DNA from: Plumapathes pennacea
Lineage: Eukaryota; Cnidaria; Anthozoa; Antipatharia; Myriopathidae
DNA: 64,000 nt
Direction of reading: 5' to 3'
Assembly (NCBI GenBank): GCA_964036295.1
Contig: OZ038473.1
Span: 9,393,501 to 9,457,500 of the forward strand
In this document: positions 25,101 through 60,359 of the stretch, in pieces
Layout: the number at the start of each line of letters is the position of its first letter
Position numbering within the stretch: position 1 is the stretch's first letter
Made by a program: the position numbers and the translations under genes
Notes under the pieces: model-generated
Database searches by the model: none
What the model was told of the DNA's origin: nothing
The model's input: the letters and a program-made list of their open reading frames with translations, nothing else

Positions 25101-25110
25101 ATGAAGCGAT
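19115..25110. repeat. Region of decayed segmental duplications, no intact gene
   Basis: Several stretches are diverged copies of one another. A GTGGCA.AGATTAGCAT block occurs at 19115-19230 and 24418-24530. A block running from ACACACTAGGAAAGATTTCG through CCAGATTTTATC.GCCCCA to CAGACTTTCAGGGAA, ACC..CACTGAGATG and ATGTACCAATATA.CA occurs at about 19.36-19.70, 20.40-20.60 with 20.77-20.92, 22.05-22.30 and 22.46-22.72 kb. Further fragments lie at 25.11-25.20 and 36.66-36.95 kb. The same block flows into the upstream part of both TPR-CHAT loci, so these are probably remnants of the locus duplication. Confidence 0.6.
21150..21580. repeat. Low-complexity block: poly-G/poly-C runs around a GGTCTGAAATAGGGTAT repeat
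   Basis: A run of G near 21160 is followed by at least five copies of (G)GTCTGAAATAGGGTAT spaced 30-45 bp apart, and a run of C near 21560. Related fragments occur at 23867-23880. Non-coding. Confidence 0.7.
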
Positions 25111-25318
25111 TTCGCTTTTAATGGTTTAAAGTTCGGAAAATTAAATCCAGATTTTATCAGCCCCATATACAGTCCTCGTAGATCAGATTATGCGCTAAAA
25201 TGTCATAACTTACGTTTTCACCACATTGTTGCTCTATGACGCAAGTTGGTAGCACAGATGACAGCATCACGCCCAAAGCATCCGGGTCGACCAGATTCCG
25301 AGAGTGGGCGGGTCTGTG

Positions 25319-25326
25319 TGACGTCA
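25319..25326. promoter_or_regulatory. CRE palindrome TGACGTCA upstream of TPR-CHAT locus 1
   Basis: A full cAMP-response element consensus lies in a segment that is conserved between the two TPR-CHAT loci (25257-25510 and 38755-39020). The same octamer is kept at the homologous position 38821-38828. This is suggestive of a CREB/ATF-type binding site in the ancestral promoter. Confidence 0.45.
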
Positions 25327-25548
25327 GAACATCGACCAATACATACAACGCTTTGCAGGTATCCATGCTACTACAGTAGCTGTGACTCTTACGTCTTTGA
25401 TTCCTGAAAGATTAACATTTACATTAAGTACAAAAGCGTACCCTAAACAGACATCGCACTGCATATTCTGGGTTTCAGAATACCAAATAAAGTTCCTGCG
25501 ATACAGCGGTTCCTGTCTTACCCTATGTGTACAGTCCCCCAATGAAAT

Positions 25549-25639
25549 TGAAGGTCACATGCATTTTTCCGACATGCGCAGTCGCTTATGACATGCACGT
25601 CACTGAATCGTTCTCTCTCGATGCTTAACTTCAGCTGAG
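25549..25639 (+). other. Candidate non-coding first exon, copy 1
   Basis: Conserved block ending AGCTGAG directly before GTAAGT. It has homologues at 27436-27524 and 39942-40023, each also ending at a donor. Together with the conserved acceptor just before the TPR-CHAT start codons, it suggests a 5' UTR exon. RNA evidence is needed to prove transcription. Confidence 0.4.
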
Positions 25640-27435
25640 GTAAGTTTACTTGATACAGCAGGACTTTATCCTTTATCCAAATAGGAACAAACCTCTATTG
25701 TAACCTCTAAAGGTGGGGCTGGCACAATCGTTGTGCTTAATTGGTAGAGGAAACGTTTTGAGCCTTGTTGCTGTGCCCAGTTGTACAATTGAGACGCGGG
25801 AAACCTCTGACTCAGATTTCCGCAAAGATGCAGCAAAATGCGTATCCCTTTTGCATCGTATTACAAAATAGTTCCTAATGGCACTACTGCGAATGTTTTA
25901 CAGACATATTTAAGGGACTTATGCATAAAAATTGCCTAACGTTTATACGTTGCAGTCATGGTGCGTACACTGTAAATTTCGCTGAAAACTATATTGGTCT
26001 ATGTCACGCGTCCTTGTAGTTTATTTCAACATTTCCTTAAAGTTCAGCCTGATTAATAAAGTCATCTTTGTCTCTTACATTTTTAGAATTTGTTCAGATG
26101 TTTAATGATGAGTGAAGACAGCGAATGTGAAACGGGAATAATAATTTGTGCGAACCCACGCAATTTCTAAACTTAGTTCAACAATGGCTTTGACATACAT
26201 GCTTGAGCACAGCATGACACTTGTAAACACAAAAACAAAACCTATGTTACATTTTCACTTTCGTAGTTTTGGAGGGGGCAGATACATTTATATTCTGTGA
26301 ATTTCTTTCGAGGTGGACGTCTTTTGTAGGCTTACATAAAGTGAAACTGAGCATACCCTATAGTGTGAGGAAACTCTTGATACCTTGCACAGATGATAGC
26401 TGATTAAACTATCAATTCTCATTACATCACTTATACATTTTCTTTGTAGAACGTTAGGAGAATCTGCATTTTAAGCTTGGCAGCAAAGAGTTAAAGTGAA
26501 ACGTTTTCTATGGTGTCGAGTATGAATTTACTGTTTACATTTGTAAAGTTCTCGATGAGCAATCGTGTACTGAACTATTCAGGGCATGAAAATCGGCACT
26601 TCATCATTCCTTGCAAGGAGGACCTTTGATGTTCAGGAGAATAGTGTAATGGTTAAAAAAGCGGCATTCTCAAATGTGTAAACATAGGTCCACAAAGCGT
26701 ACGTGAAGCTATTTGCTAGTCGATGACAGTCTTAAATTTTTAGGGTCAGCTCAGATGTTTAATGATGAGTGCAGACAGTGAAAGCAGAAATAATAATTTA
26801 CGCGAACCCACCCAATTTCTAAATTTAATTCAACAATGGCTTCGGCATACATTACTATGAGCACGACATAACACCTGTCAACACAAAACACAAAACCCGT
26901 TACACTTTCACCTTCATAATTTTAGAAAGGTACAGATACAGTATTTCTGGATTTCTTTTGAGGTGGACGTCTCGTGTAGACCATGCTTAATGCATTAAGT
27001 GAATCTGAGTTTCTGTCCGAAGAGCAATGAATTTCGATTTCTTCTTCAGTTTCTTACCAGAATTATATAATACAGTAAGGAGAACTTGGCTTTTGATAGC
27101 TTGCTCAGATGAAAGTTGATTAAAATATCAATTCTCACTACATCACTCATATATTTTCTATACAAAAGGTTGGGAGAATCTGTATTTTGAGCTTGGCAGC
27201 GAAAGGGTTACTGCAGAGTTAAACTTTTTCTATGGTATCGAGCTGTGGTGTTTGTCGACCACTAGAATATGAGTCTACTGTTTACGTCCATAGAGTTTTC
27301 GATAAACAATCGTGTACTGAACTATGAGAACATGAAAAAAGGTACTTCATCATACTGTGCAAGGAGAGCTGTTAATTGTCAAGAGAATGGTGCAATTTTT
27401 CAAAAATATTTTCTTGACAAATAAACAAAAAATTG

Positions 27436-27524
27436 ACGGTCACATGCATTTTTCCGACATGCACAGTCGCTTATGACATGCACGTCACTGAGTCGTTCTC
27501 TCTCGATGCTTAACTTCAGCTGAG
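27436..27524 (+). other. Candidate non-coding first exon, copy 2 (nearest to TPR-CHAT gene 1)
   Basis: Same block as 25549-25639 with a few substitutions, ending before GTAAGT. If spliced to the acceptor at 29630, the 5' UTR intron would be about 2.1 kb. Confidence 0.45.
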
Positions 27525-28655
27525 GTAAGTCTACTTGATACAGCAGGACTTTATCCTTTATCCAAATAGGAACAAACCTCTATTGTAACCTCTAAAGGCG
27601 GGGCTGGTAAATCGCTGTGCTTAATTGGTAGAGGAAACGTCTTGAGCCTTGTTGCTGTGCCGAGTTGTACAATTGAGACGCGGGAAACTAATGACTCAGA
27701 TTTCCGCAAAGATGCAGCAAAATGCGTATCCCTTTTGCATCGTATTACAAAATAGTTCCTAATGGCACTACTGCGAATGTTTTACAGACATATTTAAGGG
27801 ACTTATGCATAAAAATTGCCTAACGTTTATACGTTGCAGTCATGGTGCGTACACTGTAAATTTCGCTGAAAACTATATTGGTCTATGTCATGCGTCCTTG
27901 TAGTTTATTTCAACATTTCCTTAAAGTTCAGCCTGATTAATAAAGTCATCTTTGTCTCTTATATTTTTAGAATTTGTTCAGATGTTTAATGATGAGTGAA
28001 GACAGCGAATGTGAAACGGGAATAATAATTTGTGCGAACCCACGCAATTTCTAAACTTAGTTCAACAATGGCTTTGACATACATGCTTGAGCACAGCATG
28101 ACACTTGTTAACACAAAAACAAAACCTATGTTACATTTTCACTTTCGTAGTTTTGGAGGGGGCAGATACATTTATATTCTGTGAATTTCTTTCGAGGTGG
28201 ACGTCTTTTGTAGGCTTACATAAAGTGAAACTGAGCATACCCTATAGTGCGAGGAAACTCTTGATACCTTGCACAGATAGCTGATTAAACTATCAATTCT
28301 CATTACATCACTTATACATTTTCTTCGTATAACGTTAGGAGAATCTGCATTTTGAGCTTGGTCGAGTATGAGTTACTGTTTACGTCTGTAGTGTTTTCGA
28401 TGTGCAATCGTGTACTGGACTATTCAGAGCATAAAATTGGCACTTCATTCCTTGCAAGGAGGACTTTTAATTGTCAAGAGAATAGTGCAATGGTTAAAAA
28501 GCGGCATTCTCTTGGCAATTAAACCAACCCAGCAAATGTGTAAACCTAGGTCCGACCGCAAAGCGTACGTGAAGCTATTTGCTAGTTGTTGATAGGCTAT
28601 AACAGTGCTAGCCTGGTTTTTCACGTCTCAAAATAAGACTATGATAGTTAACAAA

Positions 28656-28968
28656 TATTCGCCGAAGTGGAGGTGAATAGCGGTGGATATCTACCGAGCC
28701 GTTTCGGCGAATATAAATGTATCTGTCCCCTCCCGCTATTCACCTCCACTTCGGCGAATAATTGTTTTAGTATATACCACACAAGTTTAATAGCCAACTC
28801 CTAAATAGCTATTTTATTTCCGACAAAGTGGGCAAAAATTGGGTTCGCGCGCCATTTTGTTTTACCGGAAGCCGCCGGGAGGTGAATAGTACTTGATATT
28901 CCGAGATTGAGGAGCCAATCAGAGCGCGCAAAAAGCACTATTCACTTGTGCGGTATATACTAATGGAC
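28656..28968. mobile_element. Nested foldback elements
   Basis: Inner pair: TATTCGCCGAAGTGGAGGTG with its exact complement (28656-28683 and 28733-28760). Just outside it, AGTATATACC.CACAAG at 28768 pairs with CTTGTGCGGTATATACT ending near 28963, enclosing GC-rich sequence. Two MITEs appear to sit side by side or one inside the other. Confidence 0.7.
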
Positions 28969-29688
28969 GATAGTTCGTGTTCAAACGGGCGTGAGGGTTA
29001 CGTTCAAACTGGCATCGAATATCATCACCGTTTAATCGGGGTTTTACACTAAGCCATGCAGCTACGTACTATGCATGACCAAACACAAATTCACAAACAT
29101 GACAGTTTTTTATAATTATTTTGAGCTGATTGACATAAAAGAAGCAAAGTATAGCTTGCCAAAATATTTCAAGTCTTTGTGTAAATTTCTGCGAGGTTAT
29201 TTAGATTTTGACTCGTTATAAAAGTTTCGTAAAGTAACACACTCCAGCAAAACAAACCTGTTTCTCGTGCTCTTCTAACGATGGTAAAAAGGATTCACGG
29301 TAAAGTTACCTGTCGATTTTTCAGGGGAGCAGAATTTCCACATACAGCCAAAAAATTGGCAAAACTCACAGCCACCATAATAGTGCTTTGATTCACCACG
29401 TGGGAGAGAGCCAATAATATATTAAGAAGACCCCTACCTGGAGAGGTAATCTAAATCTTGGGTTCTGACATTCTGTCGCCAAGTTATAACATTAGCACGT
29501 TAACTCTTCACTGAAGTCTTTCTGTCTTTGAGTTAAATAGATAACAAAACACAAGTATAAACGTACAAGTGTGAGAAACGGACCCTAAGTAAAACTTCAT
29601 GGTGATATGTCGTTTTTGTTTTGATTTCAGAAAAAAGTGTCGAATTCGCAAACACTACATAAATCATACCACAAATTTTTAACCGAGA

Positions 29689-32600
29689 ATGGCAGATGAG
29701 CATCACCAATTAATGGAAGTAACAGAGTTTCTCACCAGGCTATTAACGATTGCTAAAGAAAATAGAAGCGAAGTGCTCGAAGGAAATGCCCATGAAGCCC
29801 TTGGTATCTCTTATCAAAAAGCCAAGAAGAACGAAAAGGCCATAGAACATTATGAAAAGCACCTGAAGATCTCAAAGCAAATCAAAGACAGGAAAGGCGA
29901 AGGAAATGCTTATGGTCGTCTTGGTGACTGTTATGTTTCACTCAGTCATTACGACAAGGCAGTAGAACATTATGAAATGCATCTGAACATCGCAAAACAA
30001 ATTGGAGACAAAGCTGGTGAAGGACGTGCCATAGGAAACCTTGGAAACTGTTATCATTTTCTCGGCCAATACGCCAAGGCAATAGAACATTCTGAAAGGT
30101 ATTTGAACATCACGAAACAAATTGGAGACAAGGCTGGTGAAGGAAATGCCATAGGAAACCTTGGGCAAAGTTACAATTCTCTCGGTCAGTACGACAAAGC
30201 ATTAGAACTTTTTGAAATGCATCTGAACATCGCAAAACAAATTGGAAACAAAGCTGGTGAAGGAAGTGCCATAGGAAACCTTGGAATATGCTATCGCTGT
30301 CTCGGTCAATACCATAAAGCAATAGAACATCACGAAATGCATCTGAACATCGCGAAACAAATTGGAGACAAAGCTGGAGAAGGAAGTGCGAAAGGAAACC
30401 TTGGAATATGCTATTGCTGTCTCGGTCAATACCACAAGGCAATAGAACATCATGAAATGCATCTGGATATCGCAAAACAAACTGGAGACAAGGCTGGTGA
30501 AGGAAGTGCGAAAGGAAACCTTGGAACATGCTATCGCTGTCTCGGTCAATACCACAAGGCAATAGAACATTATGAAATGCATCTGAACATCGCTAAACAA
30601 ATAGGAGACATAGCTGGTGAAGGAAAAGCTAAAGGAAGACTTGGAACTTGCTATCGCTGTCTCGGTCAATACCACAAGGCCATAAAACATTTTGAAATGC
30701 ATCTGAATATCGCCAAACAAATTGGAGACAAGACTGGTAAGGGACGTGCCATAGGAAACCTTGGAACTTGCTATAGTGGTCTCGGTCAGTACAATAAAGC
30801 GATAGAACATTATGAAATGCATTTGAACATCGCGAAACAAATTGGAGACAAGGCTGGTGAAGGAAGTGCCAAAGAAAGCCTTGGAAATTGCTATAGTTGT
30901 CTCGGTCAGTACAATAAAGCAATAGAATATCATGAAATGCATCTGGACATCGCGAAACAAATTGGAGACAAGGCTCGTGAAGGAAATGCCATAGGAAACA
31001 TTGGAAATTGCTATTGCTATCTCAGTCAGTACCACAAGGCGATAGAACATCATGAAATGCATCTGGATATCGCAAAACAAATTGGAGACAAGGCTGGTGA
31101 AGGAAATGCCATAGGAGGCCTTGGAAATTGCTACTGCTTGCTTAGTCAGTACCACAAGGCGATAGAACATCATGAAATGCATCTGAATATCGCGAAACAA
31201 ATTGGAGACAAAGGTGGAGAAGGAAGTGCCATAGGAAACCTTGGAACTTGCTACCGTCTTCTCTGTCAGTACGATAAAGCAATACAGCATTATGAAATGC
31301 GCCTGAATATCGCGAAACAAATTGGAGACAAGGCTGGTGAAGGAACTGCCATAGGAAACCTTGGAACTTGCTATCGTTGTCTGGGTCAGTACGACAAGGC
31401 AGTAAAACATTTTGAAATGCATCTGAGCATCGCAAAACAAATTGGAGACAAGGCTGGAGAAGGAGGTGCAATAGGAAACCTTGGAACATGCTATCGTTGT
31501 CTGGGTCAGCACGACAAGGCAATAGACCATTATGAAATGCGTCTGAACATCGCGAAACAAATTGGAGACAAAGCTGGTGAAGCATGTGCCATAGGAAACC
31601 TCGGAAACTGTTATCATTCTCTAGGTCATTACGATAAGGCAACAGAACTTTATGAAACAGCCCTGAACATCGCGAAAAAGACTGGAAACAAGGCTGGTGA
31701 AGCAGGTGCTATAGGATACCTTGGAAACCGTTATTTTTCTCTCGGTCAGTACAACAAGGCAATAGAACATTACAAAATGCGTTTGAACATCGCAAAAAGA
31801 ATTGGAGACAAGGCTTGTGAAGGAAATGCAATAGGAAAACTTGGACACTGTTATTATTCTCTTGGTCAGTATGACAAGGCAATAGAACATCATGAAATGC
31901 ATCTAAACATCACGAATCAAATTGGAGACATTGAATCTGAGGCCATCTCATACCAACACCTCGGAGCTTGCTATTTTATGCTTGGACAATACGACAAAGC
32001 TGAAGAATACTACAGAAAAAGTATAGATTCCTTCGAAAAATTGTTCAAGAATGCTCCACAGCAGGATCAGTTTAAAGTATCTATTCAAGACAATTTTCTT
32101 ATTACTTATAGACAGTTGGTCACAACTTTGCTTTGTAAAGAGAAGAATGAAGAAGCTCTCGTGATTGCTGAGAGGGGACGCTCAAGAGCCCTGGCTGAGC
32201 TTTTAGTCGCTCGTCATGCTGAACGGCCAAATAATGCTGCTAAAGTCAAAGCTTTGGAACTTGATGAAATCCTTCAAGTAGTCAAGGCTTTGGACAGCAC
32301 AGTCATTTATTTTGCTCTGCTCAAACATGACATCTGTACCTGGATCATACAACGTGACGGAAATGGCATTGATTTTCAGTTTGAACTCCACTGCCAGTTG
32401 GGTGATGTTTCGATTTCTCGTCTCATCAGGAAAGCAGCAAAGTTACTAAATCCGCGTGGCGTCGTCAAGTGTGAAGATCGTTCACTGTCGTTTCTGTACC
32501 CTGACGAGTCGAAACAAAAGACAAGGAAACGAGGAGCCGAATTGCCGTCCGCCATTAACCCTGCACAGATTCCAGGTTCACAGCACAGTTGGTGGTGTGA

Positions 32601-33972
32601 CCGAGCTCCAGGTTCGGCAAGCAAGGAATGGAAACAAGCAGCCAAGACACGGTCCCCAGAAAGCAAGAAGAGTGAAGAAAAGGAAGAATCACAGTTGAAC
32701 AGTGTGTTGAAAGATCTGTTCCAAATCCTTTTTAGTCCTGTGCGACAGTTTGTAGAAGGGTCACAAGTTGTTGTGGTGCCCGATGGTCGAATTGCATTCG
32801 TTCCATTTGCTGCTCTTGTAGATGGAGACGGTCACTACGTGGCAGAGACCTTGCAAGTCAGACTTGTTCCTTCACTGGCAACAGCAAGGATGATCATGGA
32901 GCGACCAGAAGAACCAGAAGTTCAAACTAGACCCTTGATCGTGGGAGACCCAGAGGTAGAGAAATTGCAGGAGGGCGAAGAAATTATTCCTGTGCCAAGA
33001 CTACCGTTTGCCAAGAAAGAAGCTGAAATGGTTGGAAAGCTTCTTAATGTGGAGCCTTTCATGGCAGAAAGAGCGACCAAAGAGAGTTTTCTTCAAAACG
33101 TTGAAAACGCCAATTTGATCCACATCGCGTCACATGCAGATATGGACAGAGGGGAGATCTTGCTCGCCCCAAGCCCTGGAAACGACAGCAGAAAGTTCGA
33201 AGATGTCATGCTGACGATCAACGACTTGGAGCACAAGCGATTGAGGGCAAAGCTGGTTGTCCTGAGTTGTTGTCACAGCGGTCGTGGTGAAGTCAGAGCA
33301 GAAGGAATTATTGGCATCGGTCGAGCATTCCTCGGAGCTGGAGCTCGTGCAGTTCTCGTGACGCTGTGGGCCGTTGAAGATGAAGCCACCATGTACTTTA
33401 TGAAAAAGTTCTACGAGCACCTGATCTGTGGAAAAAGGGTGAACGCAGCACTCAACGAAGCCATGAAAGCCATGAGAGGGTTCGAGAAGTTCCGCCATCC
33501 TCGTTACTGGGCTCCGTTTGTCCTTATTGGAGAAGACGCGGCTCTTTTTGGTAAGTGCCAGAGTGATTCTATATACGTCAGATATGTTAAGAAAAGCTGT
33601 GCGCTCTATACAGAATCGCGAAACTCATCTAGTGTCGTAAGGAGTATCAATTATTCTTCCAAGTTTCCTATAGTTGCAATCAGAGTAAGCAGAACACTGG
33701 CGAGTGGTGTTTTACTCCAGAGTGGAATTCATATGTGCCAGCTTTCCATTAAGTCGTTGGTGCTGTGGAGTCAAAACGTCAGTCACCAACAACAGTTTTC
33801 CTAGAGACTACTCTAACCCGGACGATCACAACCAACCTACTGTTAACACTCTTGGGTTCAAACCATTTGCCACCGATAATACCGTCTCTACCCCAGTAGG
33901 TCGTGTACTTACTAACTAGTTGCAAACTGATTTTTCCACATTTTTCTATTTGTAGACGCAGGCGGAATTTAA
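29689..33972 (+). CDS. TPR-CHAT protein 1 (tetratricopeptide repeats plus caspase-like CHAT domain)
   Basis: Coding exons 29689-33550 and 33956-33972 give 1,292 residues. Residues ~45-785 hold about 19 TPR units, most of exactly 40 residues, consensus GNLGTCYRCLGQYDKAIEHY, then EMHLNIAKQIGDKAGEGSAI. A linker and helical region follow, then a CHAT domain from about residue 1010 to 1285. CHAT is a caspase-fold peptidase family; the expected pair is present as His1149 (HIASHADM) and Cys1195 (LSCCHSGRG), so activity is plausible. TPRs are protein-binding superhelices, so this is probably a signal-responsive scaffold protease. No signal peptide or membrane segment is seen. The frame runs on to 33804 if the intron is read through; the spliced end ALFDAGGI is preferred because the paralogue shows the same donor, acceptor and short tail. 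A conserved acceptor at 29630 places a 5' UTR intron upstream. Confidence 0.88.
33768..33875. repeat. Dispersed repeat in the last intron of TPR-CHAT 1
   Basis: GTCAGTCACCAACAACAGTT through to GGGTTCAAACCATTTGCC matches 49054-49165 (same order, about 80-85% by eye). It is absent from the equivalent intron of TPR-CHAT 2, so it inserted after the gene duplication or was lost there. GGGTTCAAACC resembles a pol III B box, but no A box is evident. Confidence 0.6.
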
Positions 33973-34305
33973 GCACATCACAGGTTCATCAGGAGTCAAG
34001 GTAAATCGGTGAAACATCATTGGTATCAAAATATACAGAAGAATGGTTTTGAGCCTAATTAGGTAAGAATAGAATAATCTGCACGTTTTGCTTGTAGAAT
34101 CTTGGCACGTGCTTGGTAATACTAGAATTGATCTTTCATGTACGAGTTCATGATGACACTGTGAACAGATACCAAAGTTGTACAGAAGAAAAAGTTAAAA
34201 ATATCCAATAAGCCAAACCAAACTTTGAGCTTTACTCAAACAGTGTCGGTGGTTATAGATGGTGCATAAGGACCCATGATTAGTGGTCATTAATACTGCT
34301 GTGTG

Positions 34306-34440
34306 ACAAATTTTTACAAAGCGTTTGATAAGGTGTCACACTCTCTATGTCAGAAGATTCTGAACTATATTATCTGGAGGCGAGGTTACAGCCAAACAAT
34401 AAATTGCTTGATACCCTTTATTAAATGCATTTGACAGATT
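34306..34440 (+). pseudogene. Reverse transcriptase fragment of a non-LTR retrotransposon
   Basis: One frame reads FYKAFDKVSHSLCQKILNY, matching the conserved (D)F.KAFD.V.H..L stretch of non-LTR reverse transcriptases. It is only about 45 codons long and is not flanked by other domains, so it is a dead remnant. It starts just beyond the point where similarity between the two TPR-CHAT loci ends (about 34255). Confidence 0.6.
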
Positions 34441-34847
34441 CTCTCGTCACCAATACAAGACTGACCGCGAGCCGATCACACATCAAGGACGATGGTGGAA
34501 ATTCCCCATAGTACCCATTCAGGTTCACCAAGCCGCCCTCTGAGAATTGTACAGATATTGAATTATGCTATTGCTCTCTTGGATATGTATAAAGTAGGAA
34601 TTAGTGTCCGATCACCAACATTGTGATTATATATAGTAGAGAAATATCCATTATATCTTTGCTCTCTTAGTTATATCATCAATATAAAGTACGAACTAGG
34701 AGTTCCATAATGAAAGTGAATTGCTGCTATCCTCACGCACTGATATATAGCATCTCGTTGCTTTATTTTCCATACTTTGTCCATTCACTAAATCGGTAAA
34801 TTGGCTTCGTTTGAGACCAAATTGGGTCAGTTAGGTCAAAGGCAATC

Positions 34848-34990
34848 GAGAGTTCGATTGGGTCTATTCCGGATTAGAAATAGCTAAAATGACCCAAAGT
34901 TTTGCTTGTTCTGAGGGAGATTTTGTTTGAAATGAATGTTTTGAAAACCTTCATACTTGCATTTTTAAAAGCTCTCGATCCATCTGAACC
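34848..34990. mobile_element. MITE, GGCGCGTTCGATTG family, partial copy
   Basis: Reads GAGTTCGATTGGGTCTATTC, then CGGATTAGAAATAGCTAAAA, matching the left half of the element at 1560-1783, including a TTTGAAAACC..CA.ACT segment. The right end is lost. Confidence 0.6.
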
Positions 34991-37426
34991 CATCGAAACG
35001 CACCCCGAGTATACACACTGGAGGTACGGGCTGAAAACTAGGCCACGACATTCCGACGTTGCCTAGACAACGAGCAAGAACGCTTCGATATAGACACAGT
35101 CGGAGATTCGATAAAACGGGACGCGCATTCAACAAATCGAGCATACGCGCGATGCAAGTCGGAAACATAAACAAGCGGCACCACAATTACAGAGTGATGT
35201 TTATTTCTAACTCACACGATTATGACAAGTTTGACAATGGTCTCTACCGAGTACCGACTGATGAAACAAATAAGCTCTTGACCCAAACTAACCGGATAAC
35301 TGTGGAATATGCACCAGCATTTTGTATCGAGTATACAGTGTTGTTTATAGCAGAGTTTTTCAGGAAAATTGGGCGGTGTTTAGTTAAATGCCTGTTTCGT
35401 TATCAACCACGTTTTGCTCTGGCGACTTCGGCAAAGGAGATAAACACTCACTGTACAAGTTGAGCATCATGTCATTGCGAGCACGTTCGTAGCCGATAAC
35501 CACGTTTCTAAAATCAAGGTAACGCCTTTTCGGGCCTGCATTGCAACCCGATGACTCGTACTGAACCAACAGAATGTGTCGAATAACATCCGACCGAAGG
35601 ATTCGTTTACACTCATTCTTCTTCGGTCGGTAAAGCATGTGCTGAGCATCATGACGTCGTGCGCATGTGCACACAGCTGCGTTCAATTGGCCAGAACACG
35701 TCACGTGAGGAATCCGGGCAGACGTTTGTGGTCGTCTAAAATCGTGTCTCTGCTACGTTTATTGTCGTCGTGCGCGTGTGCATATGGCCGCGTTCACTTC
35801 GCCAGCATACCTCACGTGAGGAATCCGGACAGACGTTTCCGGTCGTCTAAAATAGTGTCTCTGGTGCGCATTGTATGCTGCCTCCTTCGTCGACAGCAAT
35901 TAGTGGTCGGTTGCCAGCAAAGTAATTATGTAATATATAGTAGAGGAAATCCAGTACATTTTAGATTAACTTCTACATAGATGTGACACCAATATTAATA
36001 TGCCACATTTTATAAAATTAACACTGATTAACGCGATTTTTACCTTAGCGTTGAGAAAATTTTCCCTTTTTTATGGCTTCTCCATTGGCTTGTTATTGTA
36101 AAACTCGCGCTATATTTATCTTTATGTATGCTAACATAATCGCTGCAACTTTCGTCATTCATCGAGAATTGCCTTGGAATTCTTTGCAAAAATTCTGAAT
36201 TTCTTGAGGCTTCCGAGCAACGGCGCTACATAGAGAAACGCAGACTTTGGTCTGTCGGTGAAAATATCGTATAAAATGTCAGCCCTATACTCAGATTTGC
36301 AACTCATTATTAAGCATATCCGAGTTATAAGGAAACTGCATTGGGCGCAGATGAACTTTGGTTATAAAATGGCCGAAAGTCATCTATTTTAGATAAAGAT
36401 TCTTTCACGGTGTGCCTGATAGGGTATTAGACTACCAAAATAAGTCTCACGCACTCAGAGCGTTTAAACTCGGAGGCGTTTAGTGCAAAGATGCTTAAGA
36501 TATCCTGAAGACATTTAAGACAAGCATTCCTTTCGAGGAGGCGAATTTTGTTGAACAAAACTGGTAAACTAGAACTGCTTTGAGACTTTCTTAAACGTTG
36601 GCATTGTTTTAAGAAACTCACCTGATTTTTGGAGTTCTCAGAGCGTCTATTCCGCAGTGCTGCCAACTTAACTTGCGTCTTCTAATGATACACACTAGAA
36701 AGGAATGGAAACATGATCAAATTCTGGCCAATATCCCGTAAGAATTGTACACTGTACATCTACCCTCATATCTCAAATACGTATACTAATGTAAATTTGC
36801 GTTCTTTCTATATGAAGCACTGTACAGAAGAAGCCTCAAGAACCAAGATATTTAGCAAACAAAAAACAAAAACAAAAAACAAAACAAAACAAAACAAAAA
36901 TCACCAACAAAATGCTCATTGAATGACAGCAGTTGCAAGCTTGATATTATCGGACAAAAACGGAAAAGCATTTGCTCCTCTAACAGCACAATATGTAAAT
37001 GTCCAGGGCGGGATCTAATCCATTATACAATGTTGCACAAGTAACAGGTTTAACACCTTTATATCGTACAACGGTCAGATTGATTATTAAAACTTGCAGT
37101 GGTTATCCAGCATAAATTATCATTTCCTTCAGTTCTAAGCAATGGTTGTGTTTCGGTGGTTTCGGGTTATGAGAGTCTCTTATATTTTGATCAGTTTAAC
37201 AACTTTCTATTAACACTTTCACTCATAAGTTCAAAACGCAGACCTTTTAAAAGAAATTGTACGAGTAAGATAGTGAGAGCTTGAAGTTCAATCAGCTTTC
37301 AGAACAGGTATCAGAGTCCAAGTTCTCCATACTGTAATGTATTTCACTGGTAAAAGACTGAAGAAGAAAATTAAAGATTAATGTTACTTTTAAATTCCCT
37401 CTCTGGGAGAAGACTGCTAACATGTT
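34991..37426. other. Intergenic, no supported gene
   Basis: Open frames at 35059-35463, 35576-35980 and 36427-36666 have no splice support or recognisable domain. At 35700-35860 a block of about 110 bp (CACGTGAGGAATCCGG.CAGA, then CGTTT..GGTCGTCTAAAAT) is directly repeated. 36.66-36.95 kb holds a fragment of the decayed repeat found at 20-22 kb, ending in an A-rich (AAAAC)n tail at 36860-36900. Confidence 0.4.
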
Positions 37427-38400
37427 TTATTATATGACTGTGACGTAGTTTTACCATATAAGGTCGCAAAAGAGTGCCGGTACGGGAGCGTATTACACAC
37501 TTCAAATCCGTATTACACTGTAGAAAACCGGTTTGACCGGCTTAGACGCGCGCGTATCACAAATGAATCAAAGATTTTTCTGAGTGCAAGGTAAAACGGT
37601 GCAACGAAAGTCTATGACTTTTCAGATACAAGACTCTTCCATCGAAAGAAACTGTTACTGCATAATTTGTCAGGGAAGAGAAAGCACAGTTCAGTTGGTG
37701 GAAAGCGAACAATCGCCATGGACAAACGGCAGTTCTGACTCCGTAAAGTTTTCTGCACGATGCCGTCACTGTAAACACTGCAAAATGATTTTCGCCGTGT
37801 ACGAACACTGTTTTGTGTGGTTCCTTTGCTGGAAGGGGTCTTAAACTTTCTACAACCAGGAAGGAAATCGGTGAGTTGTTAATAATCTTGACATACAACG
37901 TGTCGGCGGTAAAAATCCTAGTTGTGTTATGAAAGTTTCAGATTCTTCAACGTACACATTCGCTGGCTCTGTTCTTGTGTTTATTCCTTAGCTACTCCGA
38001 GAAAATAAAAACCCTGTTTTGAGTACAAAGCTGCTTGCTACTGAAGAACAAAAATGGTTAAAAGTTTAAGCGAAGTGATCGATTTCAACCGCTCGAAGCA
38101 CGTTTGTTCGCTGAATACTTATTCTGTCGAAGCAAGCACTTTCGTCTCCAGCGCATTTATCTCAGCACATTTAATCTGAATTGAACTTCGATCATTTGGT
38201 GGCATAACTTCTTTAATTTTCTCTGTCAAGATTTTTAAATCGATGACCGGATTGGAAGCTGTAAGTGAATCTTTGTGTAAATGAGTGTGCGCACATTTTG
38301 CCTGGGATTGAATGAAAACAGTTTTGCTCGAAGTCTCTGTTTTATGTTTGCTGAAATATATTTTATATAAAGGTAAAACTACGTCACAGTCATATAATAA
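37427..38400. mobile_element. 974-bp element with exact 29-bp terminal inverted repeats
   Basis: The left end (37427-37455, starting TTATTATATGACTGTGACGT) and right end (38372-38400) are perfect reverse complements. The interior has scattered short frames only (for example 37557-37898 minus, 37584-37844 plus) and no recognisable transposase. It is probably a non-autonomous DNA transposon. I could not identify the target duplication. Confidence 0.75.
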
Positions 38401-38407
38401 ATCCCTC

Positions 38408-38542
38408 ATTCGATGGTTTAGCGCGTAATACGGGCCGGCATTTTACTCGTTACTCGCATTTTTCCTCGCCCCGCGGCGGGGCTCGGAAAAATACGTGCAA
38501 CTCGTAAAATACCGGCCCGTATTACGCGCTAAACCATCGAAT
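38408..38542. repeat. Near-perfect 135-bp palindrome
   Basis: Arms of about 60 bp start ATTCGATGGTTTAGCGCGTA on both strands and meet at a GC-rich centre (CCCCGCGGCGGGG). It lies 7 bp after the end of the 974-bp TIR element. It is probably a compact foldback MITE. Confidence 0.8.
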
Positions 38543-38820
38543 AAGATGTATATACTCCTTGAGTTATTTGTTCTTTCATTACTGAGAGTGATCAATTTTC
38601 TAGTATATTTTTTCCCGCAGCATGAAGAACGGGGTAATTTCAAGCAATTCAGCCCTGAAATCTCAGTCCATCATTCATATATCCCCTTCTTAATAATGCC
38701 TTGGTAATACGCTAAAATGTTAAAACTTGCCTTTTCACCACTTTAGCTGCACAAATGACAGCATCACGCCAGGAAAAAAGCGTCCAAGTCGACCAGAATC
38801 CGAGTATGGCCGGGCCTGTG

Positions 38821-38828
38821 TGACGTCA
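38821..38828. promoter_or_regulatory. CRE palindrome TGACGTCA upstream of TPR-CHAT locus 2
   Basis: The same octamer in the same context (CTGTG/TGACGTCA/GAACATCGACCA) as at 25319-25326 of locus 1. Retention in both paralogues supports function over chance. Confidence 0.45.
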
Positions 38829-39062
38829 GAACATCGACCAGTACATTCAACACTTTTAGGTGTCCATGCTGCTGATAGCTGTGACTCTTGCGCCTTAACT
38901 TCCTGAAATATTAACATTAACATAAGTACAAAGCGTAATTCCCTAAAACTGACATCACACTGATTATTCTGGGTTTCGGGATACCAAATAAAATTCCTGC
39001 GAAACAGCCGTTCCTGTCTCAGGGAATAAAATAGAACACATTCTGTGTCCAGTCTCCCCTAT

Positions 39063-39924
39063 CAATCTCGTACCCAGACCGTCTGATGTCTTACGCGCAC
39101 GCCCGACGAAATCAAAGGCTCTGGCAGAATCCGATTTTTAGATGATCTTGATTGGATATTTCGAATACAACGCAAAACAACCGGAACAACACCAACGACG
39201 GCGGAACTTTCACAGCGGCGATGAAGTATGCGGGGACCCAGTTGATTGCACCTGCATAAGGCAGCGAAGATAAAAAGACGAATCAGTTCTCTAGATTGCA
39301 ACTTGACCCAATGGTGGCTTTGCAACCAATGCTGCTCCCTGCTGTCGTTGTTAAACGCGGCCTTCGCGATCAAGCACTTCAAATTTTGAAGCAACCTCCC
39401 GTCGGTACACTATGTCTTTAGGCAACTTTGAAGCATATATCTGTCCCTACAGAACCAGCTGAAAGCGACGAAGTGAAGTCAGACATTTGTACTCGTACCA
39501 TACTCTTTATTTATTACAGCGGTAGCTTGTTTACTGTGCAGCTGCTTTGTATTTGCGCGATACCTGTACGGATTATGTGTACGGTATTCTTCATATGTAC
39601 GTCGTGAGCATGGCAACTTGACCAGGCCAACAGAGTTACTGTATTTGCAGTATCGATAAAATCAGTCAATTAATCGATGGACTTGTCGTATAAAAGATCC
39701 GTTGGTGCAACGGAAACATCCTTTTACGGTAACGATATAGTGGATTCATTTTCCGGCAAACCCCATACAAAACAATAAAAGCTACCAAAAACCGGAAAAA
39801 TAAATCTGGCTTGCCATGTTACCCGCAGGTATTTTACCCATACAAAGGCTCTGGCATTTTACCCAGAGCCTTTGATTTCGTCGGGCATACGCGTATAACA
39901 TCGGACGGTCTGGGTACGAGATTG
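39063..39924. mobile_element. 862-bp TIR element inserted in the TPR-CHAT 2 upstream region
   Basis: Ends are inverted: CAATCTCGTACCCAGACCGT at the left and its complement at the right, with similarity extending about 75 bp inwards through GCCCGACGAAATCAAAGGCT. It is flanked by imperfect 10-bp direct repeats (TCTCCCCTAT, TCTCCTCCAT). The homologous stretch of locus 1 (about 25525-25545) runs straight through without it. A minus-strand frame at 39062-39394 shows no recognised domain. Confidence 0.75.
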
Positions 39925-39941
39925 TCTCCTCCATGAAATTG

Positions 39942-40023
39942 ACGGTCACGTGCCGATTTTCCCGACATGCACAGTCGCTTATGACACACACGTCGTTGAA
40001 TCGCTCTCTCCCTCTCAGCTAAG
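39942..40023 (+). other. Candidate non-coding first exon of TPR-CHAT 2
   Basis: Homologous to 25549-25639 and 27436-27524, ending AGCTAAG directly before GTAAGT. Splicing to the acceptor at 41259 would give a 5' UTR intron of about 1.24 kb. Confidence 0.45.
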
Positions 40024-40449
40024 GTAAGTGTACTTGATATAAAAACGTTATCACTTTTCCAAGAGAAAACTGACCTCTACTGTAACCTTTAAAGGAGAGG
40101 CTGCTACAATCGTTGCGCTTAATTAAATACATAGCGAAGGTTTTGAGTCTTATTGCTATGCCGCGAAGGGTACAAGGCGCCGGAAACTTATGAAAGATGC
40201 AGTAAGACGCGTATTCCTTATGCATCAAATTACAAGATAAATCCTAGTGGTACTGCTGTGAACCATTTAAAGACATTTTTAAACGATTTATGCATAAAAA
40301 TTGCCCAATGTTTATGCGTTGCAGTCGTGGTACATAAATCTCGCTAAACACCATTTTGGTCTATGTCCTTGTGAATAAGTTAAACGTCTCCTTGACAGTT
40401 CAGTCTGATTAATTCAGTTATCTAGTGGTATAGTAAAGTAATCTTTGTT

Positions 40450-40790
40450 TCTTACGTTATTTAATCAGTTCAGATGTTGAGTGCAGACAGCGAATGTGAA
40501 AGCGGAAGTAGTAATTTATGCAAACCCAAGCAATTTCTAAATAATTTAATAGTTTAACAATCGGCCACATGCATGACACTTGACAACACAAAATATTAAA
40601 CTTAAGAATGAAAATCACCTAAGCTCTACAGTCATGGTACTTTGTAACTCGCTGAAAACTAGTCGAAATCTAGTAGAATAGTAAATTTATCTTTATCCCT
40701 TGCATTTTTAGAATAATTTCAGATGTTTGATATTGAGTGTAGACAGTGAATGTGAAAGCGGAAATAGTAATTTACGTGCAAGGCACTTTG
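40450..40790 (+). repeat. Two diverged copies of the 5'-region B repeat
   Basis: CAGATGTTGAGTGCAGACAG at 40471 and TTTCAGATGTTTGATATTGA at 40718, each followed by CAG.GAATGTGAAAGCGGAA, correspond to the B segment at 26.09, 26.75 and 27.98 kb. The ancestral locus therefore already had more than one B. Confidence 0.55.
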
Positions 40791-41326
40791 TGAATAAGAA
40801 GAACTTGCCGTCTTTTTTCGCAGGTGACAAATATTTAAATGTCAGATAGTTTGTTTTGATAATTTCCTAACAAGCTGAAAGAGCCGCTGGGCAAATGTAA
40901 TCCATTTTATACATTATCTTGTCGTTCAAGTGTTTAAAGAAGTTAACGAACAGCCCTAATTTCTAAAGAATATTGCACAATCAAACAATAAGTCCCTGAC
41001 TATTTGTGGAGAAAAGCTGTATCCCTGGGACCCGAAGCACCCTTCCTCCCTAGTCACGCAACACGCGCCAACCAATAACACATTTTTTTACAATAACAGT
41101 AAACCGCAGTCTCTGCTCCCAAGACAAATTTAGGTTTCTCATGTGAACGGTTCGACAGCTTTCATTACATAAAAAAAATATACATGAATAGTGGAGTGAG
41201 AAACGGAATCGATCCTAAGAAACGGTTTATGTGAGTATGTCGTTCTATTTTTATTTCAGACAATGATGCCGAATTAGCAAACACTACATAAACCATACCA
41301 TTAACTTCTAGTCAAGATTTGCACAA

Positions 41327-44300
41327 ATGGCAGATGAGCACCAACTAACAAAAAAAAGAGAGTTTTTAACCAGACTACTGAGGATTGCTCAAAAAAATGG
41401 AAGCGAAGTGCTGGAAGGAAATGTCCATGAAGCCCTTGGTCTCTCTTATCAAGTCGCTAACAAGAACGAAAAGGCCACTGAGCATTTTAAAAAGCACCTG
41501 AACATTTCTAAGAAAATTAAAGATAAGAAAGGCGAACGAAATGCTTATGACCAACTTGGTTACTGTTATACTTCACAAAATCAGTACAAGGCAATAGAAA
41601 TTCAAATGTATCTGAACATCGCGAAACAAACTGGAGACAAAGCTGCTGAAAGAAGTTCCATAGTAAACCTTGGAAATTACTATCTTGTTCTCGGTCAGTA
41701 CGACAAGGCAATAGAACAGTTTGAAATGCATCTCAACATCGCGAAACAAATTGGAGACAAGGCTGGTGAAGGAACTGCCATAAGAAACCTTGGAACTTGC
41801 TATCATTGTCTCGGTCAGTACGACAAGGCAATAGAACATCATGAAATGCATATGAACATCGCGAAACAAATTGGAGACAAAGCTGGTGAAGGAAGTGCCA
41901 TAGGAAACCTTGGCAGTTGCTATCGTTGTCTCGGTCAGTACGACAAGGCAATAGAACATCATGAAAAGCATCTGAACATTGCGAAACAAATTGGAGACAA
42001 GACTGGTGAAGGATATGCCATAGGAAACCTTGGAACTTGCTATAATTGTCTCGGTCAGTACGGCAAGGCAATAGAACATTTTGAAATTACTCTAAAAATC
42101 GCGAAACAAAGTGGAGACAAATATAGTGAAGGAAGTGCCATAGGTAACATTGGAACTTGCTATCTTTCTCTCGGTCAGAACGACAAAGCAATGGAACATT
42201 TTAAAATGCATCTGAACATCGCGAAACAAATTGGAGACAAGGCTAGTGAAGGAAGTGCCATAGGAAACCTTGGAACTTGCTATCTTTCTCTCGGTCTGTA
42301 CGACAAAGCAATGAAACATTATGAAATGCATCTGAACATCGCAAAACAAATTGGAGACAAGGCTGGTGAAGGAAGTACCACAGGAAACCTTGGAGAATGC
42401 TACAAGTGTCTCGGCCAGTACGACAAAGCAATAGAACATTATGAAATGCATTTGAGCATCGCGAAACAAATTGGAGACAGAGCTGGTGAAGGAGGTGCCA
42501 TAGGAAACCTTGGAATTTGCTATCGTCATCTCAGTCAGTACGACAAGGCAATGGAACATTTTGAAATGCATTTAAACATCGCCAACCAAATTGGAGACAA
42601 GGCTGGTGAAGGACGTGCCATGGGAAACCTTGGAACTTGCTATTGTTGTCTCGGTCTGTACGACAAAGCAATGAAACATCATGAAATGCATCTGAACATC
42701 GCAAAACAAATTGGAGACAAGGCTGGTGAAGGAACTGCCATAGGAAACCTTGGACTTTGCTATCGTTGTCTCGGTCAGTACGACAAGGCAATGGAGCATT
42801 TTGAAATGCATCTCAACATCGTGAAACAAATTGGAGACAAGGCTGATGAAGGAAAAATCATAGGAAACCTTGGAAACTGTTATAATTTTCTCGGTCAGTA
42901 TGACAAGGCAGTAGAACAATTTAAAATGCGTCTGAACATCGCGAAACAAATTGGAGACAAGGCTGGTGAAGGAAGTGCCACAGGTAACATTGGAACTTGC
43001 TATAATTATCTCGGTCAGTACGACAAGGCAATAGAACATTATAAAATGCATCTGAACATCGTGAAACAAATTGGAGACAAGGCTGGTGAAGGAAGGGTCA
43101 GAGGAAACCTTGGAACTTGCTATAACTATCTCGGTCATTACGAGAAGGCAATAGAACATTTTGAAATGCATCTGAACATCGCAAAACAAATTCGAGACAT
43201 TGAATCTGAGGCCATCTCAAACCAAAACCTCGGAAGTTGCTATTACATGCTAGGACAATACGACAAAGCAGAAGAATTCTACAGGGAAAGTTTAGAGTCC
43301 TTCGAGAAGTTGTTTAAGAACGGTCCACAGCAGGATCAGTATAAAGTGTCTATTAGAGACACTTTTATTACTACTTATAGATTGTTCGTAACAACTTTGC
43401 TTTGCAAAGAAAAGAAACAAGAAGCTCTTGTGGTTGCTGAGAAAGGACGCTCAAAAGCTTTGACTGAGCTTTTAGTTAACGCTCTTCATCCTGAACGACC
43501 AAGTAACGCTCCTGACGCGAAAGATTTGCAACTTGATGAAATCCGTGAAGTGGTCAAGGCTCTGGAAAAGACAGTCATCTATTTTGCGCTACTCAAACAT
43601 GACATTTGTACGTGGGTCATACAACGTGACGGAAATAGCATTGAAGTTTTGCCACAAGACCTCAACTGCCAGTTTGATGTTTCCATTTCTCGTCTGAGAG
43701 ATTTACTCTCGCTCATCGAAAAAGCAACCAAGTTACTAAATTCAAGTGGCGTCGTCAAGTGTGAAGATCGTTCTCTGTCGTTTCTGTACTCTGACGAGTC
43801 AAAACAAACGACAAGCAAACGAGAAGCCAAATTGCCGTCTGCCATTAACCCTGCAGAGATTCCAGTTGCACAACAGAGTTCGCGGTGTGATCGAACTCCA
43901 GGTTCGTCAAGTATGGATTGCAAACAAGCAGCCAAGACACGTTCCCCGGAAAGCAAGAATCGTGAAGACAAGGAAGAATCAGAGTTGAACAGTGTGTTGA
44001 AAGATCTGTTCCAGACCCTTTTAAGTCCAGCGCGACAGTTTGTGGAAGGGTCACAAGTTGTTGTCGTGCCTGATGGTCCACTTGCATTGGTTCCATTTGT
44101 TGCTCTTATAGATGGAGACGGTCACCACGTGGCAGAGACCTTGCAAGTCAGACTTGTTCCTTCACTGGCAACAGCAAAGATGGTCATGGAGCGCCCAGAA
44201 GAACCAGATATTCAATCGAGTCCCTTGATCGTGGGAGATCCAGACGTGGATAGGGTTCAAAAGGGTAAAGAGACGAAGTATCCAATAAGACTTCCGTTTG

Positions 44301-45350
44301 CCAAGAAAGAAGCTGAAAGGGTTGGAAAGATTCTTGGTGTGGAGCCTTTCACGGCAGAAAGAGCGACCAAAGAATGCTTTCTTCAACACGTTGAACACGC
44401 CAATTTGATCCACATCGCGTCTCATGCAGATATGGACAGAGGGGAAATCTTGCTCGCCCCAAGCCCTGGAAACGCCAGCAGAAAGTTCGAAGATGTAATG
44501 CTGACGATCACCGACCTGGAGCACAAGCGCTTGAGGGCAAAGCTGGTTGTCCTGAGTTGTTGTCACAGCGGTCGCGGCGAAGTCAGAGCAGAAGGAGTTA
44601 TCGGCATCGGCCGAGCTTTCCTCGGAGCTGGAGCTGGAGCAGTTCTTGTGACACTTTGGGCGGTTGACGATGAAGCCACCATGTACTTCATGACAAAGTT
44701 CTACCAGCACCTAACCCATAAAAAAAGGGCAAACGCAGCACTCAACGAAGCCATAAAAGCCATGACAGGAATGGAGAGGTTCCGCCATCCCCGTCATTGG
44801 GCTCCGTTTGTCCTCATTGGAGAAGATGTGGCTCTTTTTGGTAAGTGACAGAGCTGGGGATTCCATATACGTCAGTTATTGTAAGAAACTCTTTGCACTC
44901 TATACAGAATTGCGACATTGATAAAGTGTTTATAAGGAGTATCGATTATCCTTCCAAGTTTCCTAGTTGCCATCAGAGTATATAAGCAGAACACTGGCGT
45001 GTTGTAGTATTTTACTCAGAGTTGAATTCATAAGTGAATAAGTTAGATAGTTTGTGATATGAGGAGGAAAAGTGTAGAGAGCCTTCTATTGGCAGTATGG
45101 TGAAATAAGTTGTGGACTTACAAAAAATTAACATGTTGTTACAAGAAAAAAGTTAAATAGGTAGCAAACTGACGTCAAAGATTGAAATGAGTAATGACTC
45201 GTGTAGTACCGGAAAGGGAATTTGTGAATAAGTAAAGTTCACAAGATCGATAATATCATCCCTTCCCCAGGAAGTCGTGTACTTACTAAAGCCATAGCTG
45301 CAAACTGATTTTTTCATATTTGTCCTTTTGTAGACGAAGGCGGAGAATAA
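41327..45350 (+). CDS. TPR-CHAT protein 2 (paralogue of the gene at 29689)
   Basis: Coding exons 41327-44840 and 45334-45350 give 1,176 residues. It starts MADEHQLTKKREFLTRLLRI, closely matching gene 1. About 16 TPR units (residues ~44-655) are mostly 40 residues long; unit 2 has lost one residue (QYKAIEIQ where gene 1 keeps YDKA). After the linker (PESKNREDKEESELNSVLKD), the CHAT domain carries His1033 (HIASHADM) and Cys1079 (LSCCHSGRG), so the caspase-like pair is intact. The spliced tail is ALFDEGGE, matching ALFDAGGI of gene 1; without splicing the frame ends ALFGK at 44848. Relative to gene 1 it lacks about three TPR units but keeps 13 more residues in the region just before the linker. 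Function is inferred from the family; the ligand and the substrate are unknown. Confidence 0.88.
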
Positions 45351-45630
45351 TCACATTGCAGGTTCATCAAGACTTGAGGTAAATAAGTAAAGTCTTTAGT
45401 TGAAGATATACGTTGAGGAATGTTTAAGAAAGTATATAAGAATAAAATAATCGACCCGTTTTGTAGAATCTCGGCACGAGCTTGGTAATACTAGAATCGA
45501 TCTTTCATGTATTCCCTGTTAACACTAAGAACAGGTATCAAAGTTGCACGGAAGAAAAAGGGAAAGAAATGGGGAAAAAATTCCAATAAGTCAAACCGAA
45601 CTTTGAGCTTTACTAAAAGAGTGTTGGCGT
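45351..45630 (+). other. 3' flank of TPR-CHAT 2, homologous to 33973-34255
   Basis: GGTTCATCA.GA.T.GAGGTAAAT, GGCACG.GCTTGGTAATACTA, TCTTTCATGTA and CTTTGAGCTTTACT occur in the same order after both genes. AATAAA at about 45444 is changed in copy 1 (AATAGAATAA). This marks the right edge of the duplicated unit. Confidence 0.6.

Positions 45631-49345: not shown

Positions 49346-60359
<11,014 letters not shown>

What the first reader, a model, noticed from the sequence alone, without database searches (positions are those of the whole stretch)
25110..45630. Paired TPR-CHAT genes with intact caspase-like His/Cys in both copies
Seen: two full-length genes with 40-residue TPR arrays and a C-terminal CHAT domain carrying HIASHAD (His1149/His1033) and LSCCHSG (Cys1195/Cys1079). 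Known: CHAT is a caspase-fold peptidase family, and bacterial TPR-CHAT proteins are the protease partner in type III-E CRISPR. Inference: the pair may be an animal immune or death-signalling module in which the TPR superhelix senses a ligand. The substrate is unknown, and the two paralogues differ in TPR number, which could change specificity.
Basis: partly seen in the sequence, partly recalled or inferred. Interest (0 to 1): 0.85.

Follow-up and report, generated by a model that had tools for sequence, protein, structure and literature searches.

The report
Tandem coral-type TPR-CHAT protease genes
Two neighbouring animal genes, probably from a coral or a close relative, each encode a long repeat-built binding arm joined to a caspase-like cutting domain with its two catalytic residues kept; they fit a gene family already known to be hugely expanded in corals, and their repeats vary mostly at the residues expected to touch a ligand.

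Summary
Two single-exon ORFs (29689-33804, 41327-44848, + strand) encode 19 and 16 forty-residue TPRs and a C-terminal CHAT domain (PF12770, E 1.4e-59 and 1.3e-56), about 72% identical. His1149/Cys1195 and His1033/Cys1079 align with the His and Cys of the 10 plasmid CHATs I aligned (of 115 records hit) and, weakly (E 0.013), with Csx29 H615/C658, whose mutation abolishes cleavage (PMC10028731). The fold model is closest to Craspase TPR-CHAT. His-Cys distance could not be measured.

It is not a new kind: TPR-CHAT (TTC28-like) genes number 276 and 304 in two Acropora and 362 in a Pocillopora (PMC12314368). Apoptotic or immune roles are proposed, not shown.

What I add: variation among repeats sits on concave ligand-contact positions, omega 1.95 (LR against 1: 14.1) versus 0.43 elsewhere; CHAT windows holding the dyad are the most constrained. 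The signal is strong in copy 2, not significant in copy 1, and also occurs in cyanobacterial arrays, at least one apparently without CHAT. It supports diversified binding, not immunity as such. No partner gene in 20 of 89 ORFs scanned.

The parts
29689..33804 (+). Copy 1: TPR-CHAT ORF, 1371 aa, 19 TPR units, single exon
29773..32052 (+). Copy 1 TPR array (residues 29-788)
   Evidence: tandem-repeat array 29941-31930, period 120
32704..33534 (+). Copy 1 CHAT domain (PF12770, residues 1006-1282)
33133..33135 (+). Copy 1 catalytic-position His1149 codon
33271..33273 (+). Copy 1 catalytic-position Cys1195 codon
33556..33804 (+). Copy 1 read-on tail of 82 codons plus stop, where copy 2 has TGA; or not translated if the GTAAGT just before it is a splice donor
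41327..44848 (+). Copy 2: TPR-CHAT ORF, 1173 aa, 16 TPR units, single exon
   Evidence: model of the whole protein
41408..43321 (+). Copy 2 TPR array (residues 28-665)
   Evidence: tandem-repeat array 41586-43199, period 120
43742..43945 (+). Insert between the first CHAT hairpin and the CHAT core of copy 2 (residues 806-873), predicted disordered
   Evidence: pLDDT below 50 at 806-873; the like at model residues 220-273
43994..44824 (+). Copy 2 CHAT domain (PF12770, residues 890-1166)
44423..44425 (+). Copy 2 catalytic-position His1033 codon
44561..44563 (+). Copy 2 catalytic-position Cys1079 codon
39933..40593 (.). Upstream block of copy 2, about 70% alike to 25542-26234 and 27430-28118 upstream of copy 1; role unknown (promoter or 5'UTR exon are guesses)

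Best explanation
The pair are tandem-duplicated members of the anthozoan TPR-CHAT (TTC28-like) family and work as latent intracellular receptor-proteases. The TPR superhelix binds a ligand or partner peptide through the variable residues of its concave face; binding shifts the TPR-CHAT linker and reorders the loops that carry His and Cys, so that the CHAT domain cleaves one or a few signalling substrates. Shown here: architecture, the dyad in the family's catalytic positions, fold kinship of copy 2 to Craspase TPR-CHAT and separase, stronger constraint round the dyad, faster change of the concave face. Inferred: catalytic activity, allosteric activation by a ligand (by analogy with Csx29), the substrate (a gasdermin or similar death effector is a candidate by analogy with fungi and bacteria), cellular location, and an immune or stress role.
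For: PF12770 and 40-residue TPRs in both ORFs. His and Cys align in 10 of 10 plasmid CHATs that I aligned, chosen from 115 records with a match, and in 35 of 35 further bacterial rows of A4 (these were fetched with two patterns, one of which contains the His motif, so the His count is biased). By the profile alignment (E 0.013, positions counted by me) they fall on Csx29 H615 and C658, whose double mutation abolished cleavage (passages of PMC10028731). AlphaFold model of copy 2 residues 590-1173: pLDDT 83.7, pTM 0.84; the ten best Foldseek hits are type III-E TPR-CHAT/Csx29 complexes (best E 3.6e-12), with the DdvA CHAT protein and separases after them. Ka/Ks between the copies in the two 60-codon windows holding His and Cys is 0.24 and 0.13, the lowest of the CHAT-core windows, against 0.40 for the whole core (few changes). 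The four most variable TPR positions are 5, 12, 15, 16 = canonical 2, 9, 12, 13, all among the seven most variable, concave positions named in PMC1261162 (passages); omega 1.95 for 2, 5, 9, 12, 13 against 0.43 for the rest, LR against omega=1 14.1. Literature: a TPR-bearing CHAT protease activates a gasdermin in Podospora (passages of PMC12881547); 56 TTC28-like genes were differentially expressed, mostly down, in corals given an actinobacterium in a heat-stress study (passage of PMC10668361); [quoted passage not shown]
Against: No activity, expression, ligand or substrate data. The concave-face signal is not special to these genes: omega at those positions exceeds 1 in 12 of 13 cyanobacterial TPR-CHAT arrays (LR above 3.84 in 6 of 13) and in both complete arrays without the CHAT motif (4.24 with LR 21.2; 1.65 with LR 3.0). 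In copy 1 alone it is 1.25, LR 0.9. For the four-position set the bootstrap of the counting method includes 1 (0.92-2.56). Position 5 of the canonical set is a conserved Gly here with omega 0.31. Ka/Ks for the whole post-TPR part is 0.41, which is not tight. No gasdermin or other effector in the 20 of 89 ORFs scanned. The separase P1-pocket acid could not be placed in these proteins, so no substrate preference is offered. Published authors also suggest a cell-cycle role (PMC9145168).
Confidence: 0.55

Rival explanations
1. TTC28-like scaffold: the proteins act in cytokinesis or trafficking as TPR adaptors, and the CHAT fold is a docking domain whose dyad is kept for the fold or by recent common descent.
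For: Human TTC28/TPRBK, named as the putative human homologue, is described with a role in cytokinesis (section 15 of PMC12314368; passages of PMC9145168). The TPRs match LGN/Pins, a cell-polarity adaptor, among the best natural TPR structures.
Against: The windows with the dyad are the most constrained of the CHAT core; a cell-cycle scaffold would not be expected to reach hundreds of copies (PMC12314368) with fast-changing concave faces.
Confidence: 0.2
2. Symbiosis or self-recognition receptor-protease rather than pathogen or death sensor: same chemistry, but the ligand comes from the alga, the microbiome or another colony.
For: A 'tetratricopeptide repeat protein 28' is listed under establishment and maintenance of symbiosis in a paper's section on loci under selection (passage of PMC10363134); copy number differs between haplotypes (section 15 of PMC12314368); TTC28-like genes change expression when a bacterium is added (passage of PMC10668361).
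Against: All indirect and for other family members; nothing in the window speaks to the ligand.
Confidence: 0.15
3. Mostly neutral tandem amplification: recombination-prone arrays expand and drift, and many copies, perhaps copy 1 with its lost stop, are not functional.
For: Flanks are duplicated as well; tandem duplication is the published mode of expansion (PMC12314368); copy 1 lacks the stop of copy 2 and its concave omega alone is not above 1.
Against: Both frames are open over more than 1170 codons; Ka/Ks 0.41 after the TPRs; omega 0.43 for the other TPR positions.
Confidence: 0.1

Closest known systems
Coral TPR-CHAT domain-containing proteins / TTC28-like family (PMC12314368, PMC9145168, PMC6208414)
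   Same: Long TPR stretch then one CHAT; tandem duplication; variable TPR length
   Different: Nothing found that sets the window genes apart; the word 'catalytic' has 0 hits in the main text of all three papers, so the dyad seems not to be discussed there
Csx29 / TPR-CHAT of type III-E CRISPR (Craspase)
   Same: TPR then CHAT; best Foldseek hits; His and Cys in the same positions (weak alignment)
   Different: Csx29 has eight TPRs and is switched on within a Cas7-11 complex by target RNA (passages of PMC10028731); here 16-19 closely alike TPRs and no CRISPR-like gene in the window
Separase
   Same: Caspase-type protease domain at the end of a helical arm; Foldseek E from 3.3e-9
   Different: Not reached by sequence (in one search only the best 60 of 241 hits were shown, all of those seen being TPR or CHAT proteins other than separase); P1-pocket residue not placed
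TPR-bearing CHAT protease that activates a gasdermin in Podospora (PMC12881547, passages)
   Same: TPR plus CHAT; death-effector protease
   Different: The fungal gene sits in a cluster with its gasdermin; no such neighbour was seen here (20 of 89 ORFs scanned)
LGN/GPSM2/Pins TPR domain
   Same: 40-residue TPR type
   Different: No CHAT; GoLoco motifs instead (recalled)

Membership tests
CHAT peptidase family (PF12770) | Match above Pfam's curated cut-off | tested here: met
   202.4 and 192.6 bits against a cut-off of 24
CHAT peptidase family (PF12770) | His and Cys in the catalytic positions | tested here: met
   Invariant in A2, 12 of 12 rows, and A4, 37 of 37 rows; on Csx29 H615/C658 by the alignment (E 0.013)
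CHAT peptidase family (PF12770) | His and Cys side by side in the fold | tested here: inconclusive
   Both lie at or just after predicted strands and the fold matches CHAT structures; no coordinates, so no distance
CHAT peptidase family (PF12770) | Proteolytic activity | not testable with these tools
   needs a bench assay
Coral TPR-CHAT (TTC28-like) family | Long N-terminal TPR stretch followed by one CHAT | tested here: met
   definition from section 15 of PMC12314368
Coral TPR-CHAT (TTC28-like) family | Phylogenetic placement with coral copies and TTC28 | not tested
   No eukaryotic sequence collection was available
Craspase (type III-E) TPR-CHAT, Csx29 | Cas7-11/gRAMP and Csx30 genes alongside | tested here: not met
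   No further ORF of such length in the window: apart from the two TPR-CHAT ORFs the longest stop-to-stop frame is 472 aa and antisense to copy 1
Gasdermin-protease two-gene module | Gasdermin gene adjacent | tested here: inconclusive
   None in 20 of 89 ORFs scanned; shorter exons and the other ORFs were not scanned

The most novel reading that the evidence does not exclude
Coral TPR-CHAT proteins are an animal repertoire of one-piece receptor-proteases: the side chains at canonical TPR positions 2, 9, 12 and 13, repeated 16-19 times and reshuffled by unequal recombination, form a combinatorial recognition code under diversifying selection, wired directly to a conserved caspase-like cutter. 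It would be an NLR and its caspase in one polypeptide.
Probability: 0.25. Interest if true: 0.8.

Novelty: new member of a known kind. Interest (0 to 1): 0.4.

Why it matters
The family is among the most expanded in some reef corals, and I found no tested function for it. A kept dyad together with a fast-changing binding face turns a vague 'TTC28-like' label into a concrete, testable claim: ligand-gated proteolysis. If true it would link coral stress and immune biology to the TPR-CHAT proteases known from CRISPR and from fungal gasdermin systems.

Tried and rejected
Recent bacterial or plasmid origin of the genes: not supported; the 40 plasmid records listed of 115 show 24-37% identity, and the genome contigs and viral-contig scans gave only distant relatives (best-segment identity 26-36% in the 80 kept of 529; 24% and 37%). 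Earlier scans with the two window copies alone found none.

Concave-face selection as a mark of immunity: rejected as too strong after the cyanobacterial controls. The 13 arrays are those of 92 loci in which my pattern found six or more chained 40-residue units. Of the nine arrays, L122 gives the same figures as L031 and is taken as the same array. The other eight showed no CHAT motif in the stretch held, but one search lists CHAT matches in frames of the same length on the same contigs for four of them (L094, L095, L102, L110); for L093 and L118 the list, which is capped, does not decide. Only L097 and L099 are frames complete within the locus and without the motif, and the frame of L097 is parted from a longer one by a TAG, so it may be a piece of a broken gene.

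Substrate preference (Arg at P1, as in separase): tried by counting from the catalytic Cys with the numbers in passages of PMC9729208 and the alignment; two registers were possible, so dropped.

Motif counts on 92 loci: the His pattern was found in 90 of 92 and the Cys pattern in 90 of 92. Of the four misses L008 is a pattern failure (it aligns); L011, L012 and L041 were not followed up. Three ORFs with internal stops (L014, L040, L066) were left out of A4, and A4 used 35, picked by hand, of the 71 bacterial ORFs of at least 760 aa. IQ-TREE's codon runs gave no omega that I could read from the part of the report printed, so I wrote a small likelihood script.

A second structural aligner was not on the machine.
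Full report
What is there. Pfam finds TPR_12 and related TPR models over the N-terminal part and CHAT (PF12770) at the C-terminus of both. BLASTP aligns the two at 72% identity over 1171 columns (the local alignment is shifted by whole units within the repeats); the CHAT halves are 79% identical. tblastn with the parts after the TPRs finds only these two copies in the window. Unit counting gives 19 and 16 TPRs.

Gene models. Each coding part is one exon. An acceptor-like TTTCAG lies roughly 60 bases upstream of each ATG (sequence), so an upstream non-coding exon is possible but not shown. At the end, copy 2 stops with TGA right after ...LFGK; copy 1 has TGC there and runs on 82 codons. Both read GGTAAGTG at that point, which resembles a splice donor, so either the tail or splicing is possible; only RNA can decide. 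Flanks are duplicated too.

Catalytic residues. In an alignment with ten plasmid-borne CHATs chosen from the 115 records that tblastn found, His1033 and Cys1079 of copy 2 fall in invariant columns. They are also invariant in the 37-row alignment A4 (35 of 35 bacterial rows), with the caveat that these loci were collected with two patterns, one of which contains the His. A profile of eight CHATs reaches Csx29 at E 0.013 and puts the two residues on Csx29 H615 and C658 (positions counted by me from the printed alignment), the pair whose double mutation abolished Csx30 cleavage (PMC10028731, passages).

Structure. With A4, AlphaFold2 gives pLDDT 83.7 and pTM 0.84 for residues 590-1173 of copy 2, with one disordered insert. 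Foldseek against the PDB fills its first ten ranks with type III-E TPR-CHAT/Csx29 complexes (best E 3.6e-12), then the DdvA CHAT protein, separases and SAVED-CHAT. The TM-scores by query length are only about 0.2-0.5 and rmsd mostly 10-18 angstrom; a different hinge between TPR and CHAT would do this, but the overlay of the catalytic part alone was not seen. The whole of copy 2 gives pLDDT 78.1, pTM 0.66 and a long run of helix pairs; its first 90 residues or so are of low confidence. Coordinates are not returned, so the His-Cys distance remains unmeasured. Copy 1 was not modelled.

Selection. Between the copies, Ka/Ks after the TPRs is 0.41; in the CHAT core 0.40, and 0.24 and 0.13 in the 60-codon windows that hold the His and the Cys (6 synonymous and 6 non-synonymous, and 9 and 4 changes, so rough). 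Among the 29 internal TPR units (16 and 13) the most variable positions are 15, 5, 16 and 12. Counted from the Leu-Gly and Tyr landmarks of the TPR consensus (recalled) these are canonical positions 12, 2, 13 and 9. PMC1261162 (passages) names 2, 5, 9, 12, 13, 33 and 34 as the most variable positions, all on the concave face, and 2, 5, 6, 9, 12 and 13 as ligand contacts in two solved complexes. Nei-Gojobori counting gives omega 1.56 for 2, 5, 9, 12, 13 (bootstrap 1.04-2.36) against 0.35 for the rest; 1.51 for 2, 9, 12, 13 (bootstrap 0.92-2.56); and 1.21 for all seven. Of up to 500 random five-position sets none reached the non-synonymous divergence of the concave set (0.405; highest 0.342). 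A codon likelihood model gives 1.95 against 0.43, LR 14.1 against omega=1. Single positions: 5 (LR 8.4), 15 (17.1) and 16 (12.6) exceed 1; 12 does not quite (3.7), nor does 27, which is outside the set (1.85, LR 3.4); 8 (canonical 5) is 0.31. By gene: 3.81 in copy 2 (LR 22.0), 1.25 in copy 1 (LR 0.9). Shuffling labels on the tree leaves the estimate near 2 in 3 of 3 trials, so tree errors do not drive it. Units are not independent and repeats recombine, so the tests are indicative. I had seen the entropies before running the omega tests; the five-position set is the helix-A part of the literature's set.

Controls. The same test on 13 cyanobacterial TPR-CHAT arrays gives omega above 1 at those positions in 12, with LR above 3.84 in 6. 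Nine further arrays from six genomes: L122 repeats L031; of the other eight, seven are above 1 and five have LR above 3.84; four of the eight lie in frames for which one search lists CHAT, and only two (L097: 4.24, LR 21.2; L099: 1.65, LR 3.0) are frames complete within the locus and without the CHAT motif. So the pattern is, at least in part, a habit of recently amplified TPR arrays. It supports 'a binding face that diversifies', not 'immune receptor' by itself. The six genomes, which hold cyanobacterial loci of mine, have 22-62 CHAT matches each, so large CHAT repertoires are not confined to corals.

Neighbours. A LETM1 gene lies downstream on the minus strand (LETM1_RBD E 7e-19; EF-hand E 9.7e-08). 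Twenty of the 89 stop-to-stop frames of 90 aa or more were scanned with Pfam: no gasdermin, NACHT, CRISPR or death-domain match; three matches of E 0.007-0.04 lie below their curated cut-offs. Shorter exons and the other frames were not scanned.

Literature. Searches. PMC12314368 (section 15, first part, and passages) describes this architecture as TPR-CHAT DCPs: 276 and 304 genes in two Acropora, 6 to 362 across corals, 15 in Nematostella, 1-2 in the majority of other metazoans, with variable TPR length; it suggests partner diversity. PMC9145168 (passages) reports expansion in Montipora; PMC6208414 (passages) proposes a role in apoptotic signalling or bleaching. PMC10668361 (passage) reports 56 differentially expressed TTC28-like genes. 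PMC8195603 (passages) notes TRADD-N fusions to TTC28-like TPR. PMC10197012 (passages) links CHAT proteases to fungal gasdermins. I found no statement on dyad conservation or concave-face selection in the passages seen; 'catalytic' has no hit in the three coral papers. The searches listed are the only basis for that, and most subscription papers are not in the library.

Verdict. Observation confirmed; known family; mechanism by analogy. Best guess: ligand-gated CHAT proteases (0.55).

Noticed in passing
window 49895-58659, - strand: LETM1 gene in pieces (LETM1_RBD at 55383-55664, EF-hand at 49895-50269; the frame at 57832-58659 is assigned to it by eye), a normal mitochondrial gene next to the pair.
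   Followed up: partly
window 15465-16330: Minisatellite of 66/133 bp, 13 copies of the 66-bp unit, open in several frames on both strands.
   Followed up: no
window 25542-28598: Upstream region of copy 1 is itself locally duplicated (70-82% identity) and matches one block upstream of copy 2.
   Followed up: partly
window 7800-7905, 27090-27213, 28258-28378, 51493-51591, 53081-53200, 62867-62970: Dispersed repeat of about 110 bp, perhaps a short mobile element.
   Followed up: no
window 47167-47445, - strand: ORF resembling a worn LINE-type reverse transcriptase fragment (judged by eye; no Pfam hit).
   Followed up: no
window 13016-13891 and 17165-17970: Two degenerate tandem arrays of about 60-65 bp units that look related and in opposite orientation (by eye).
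   Followed up: no
L004, L058, L090 and genomes G001-G006: Filamentous-type cyanobacteria carry 22-62 CHAT matches per genome in the six searched, with neighbouring CHAT genes in L004, and concave-face omega above 1 in 12 of 13 arrays.
   Followed up: partly
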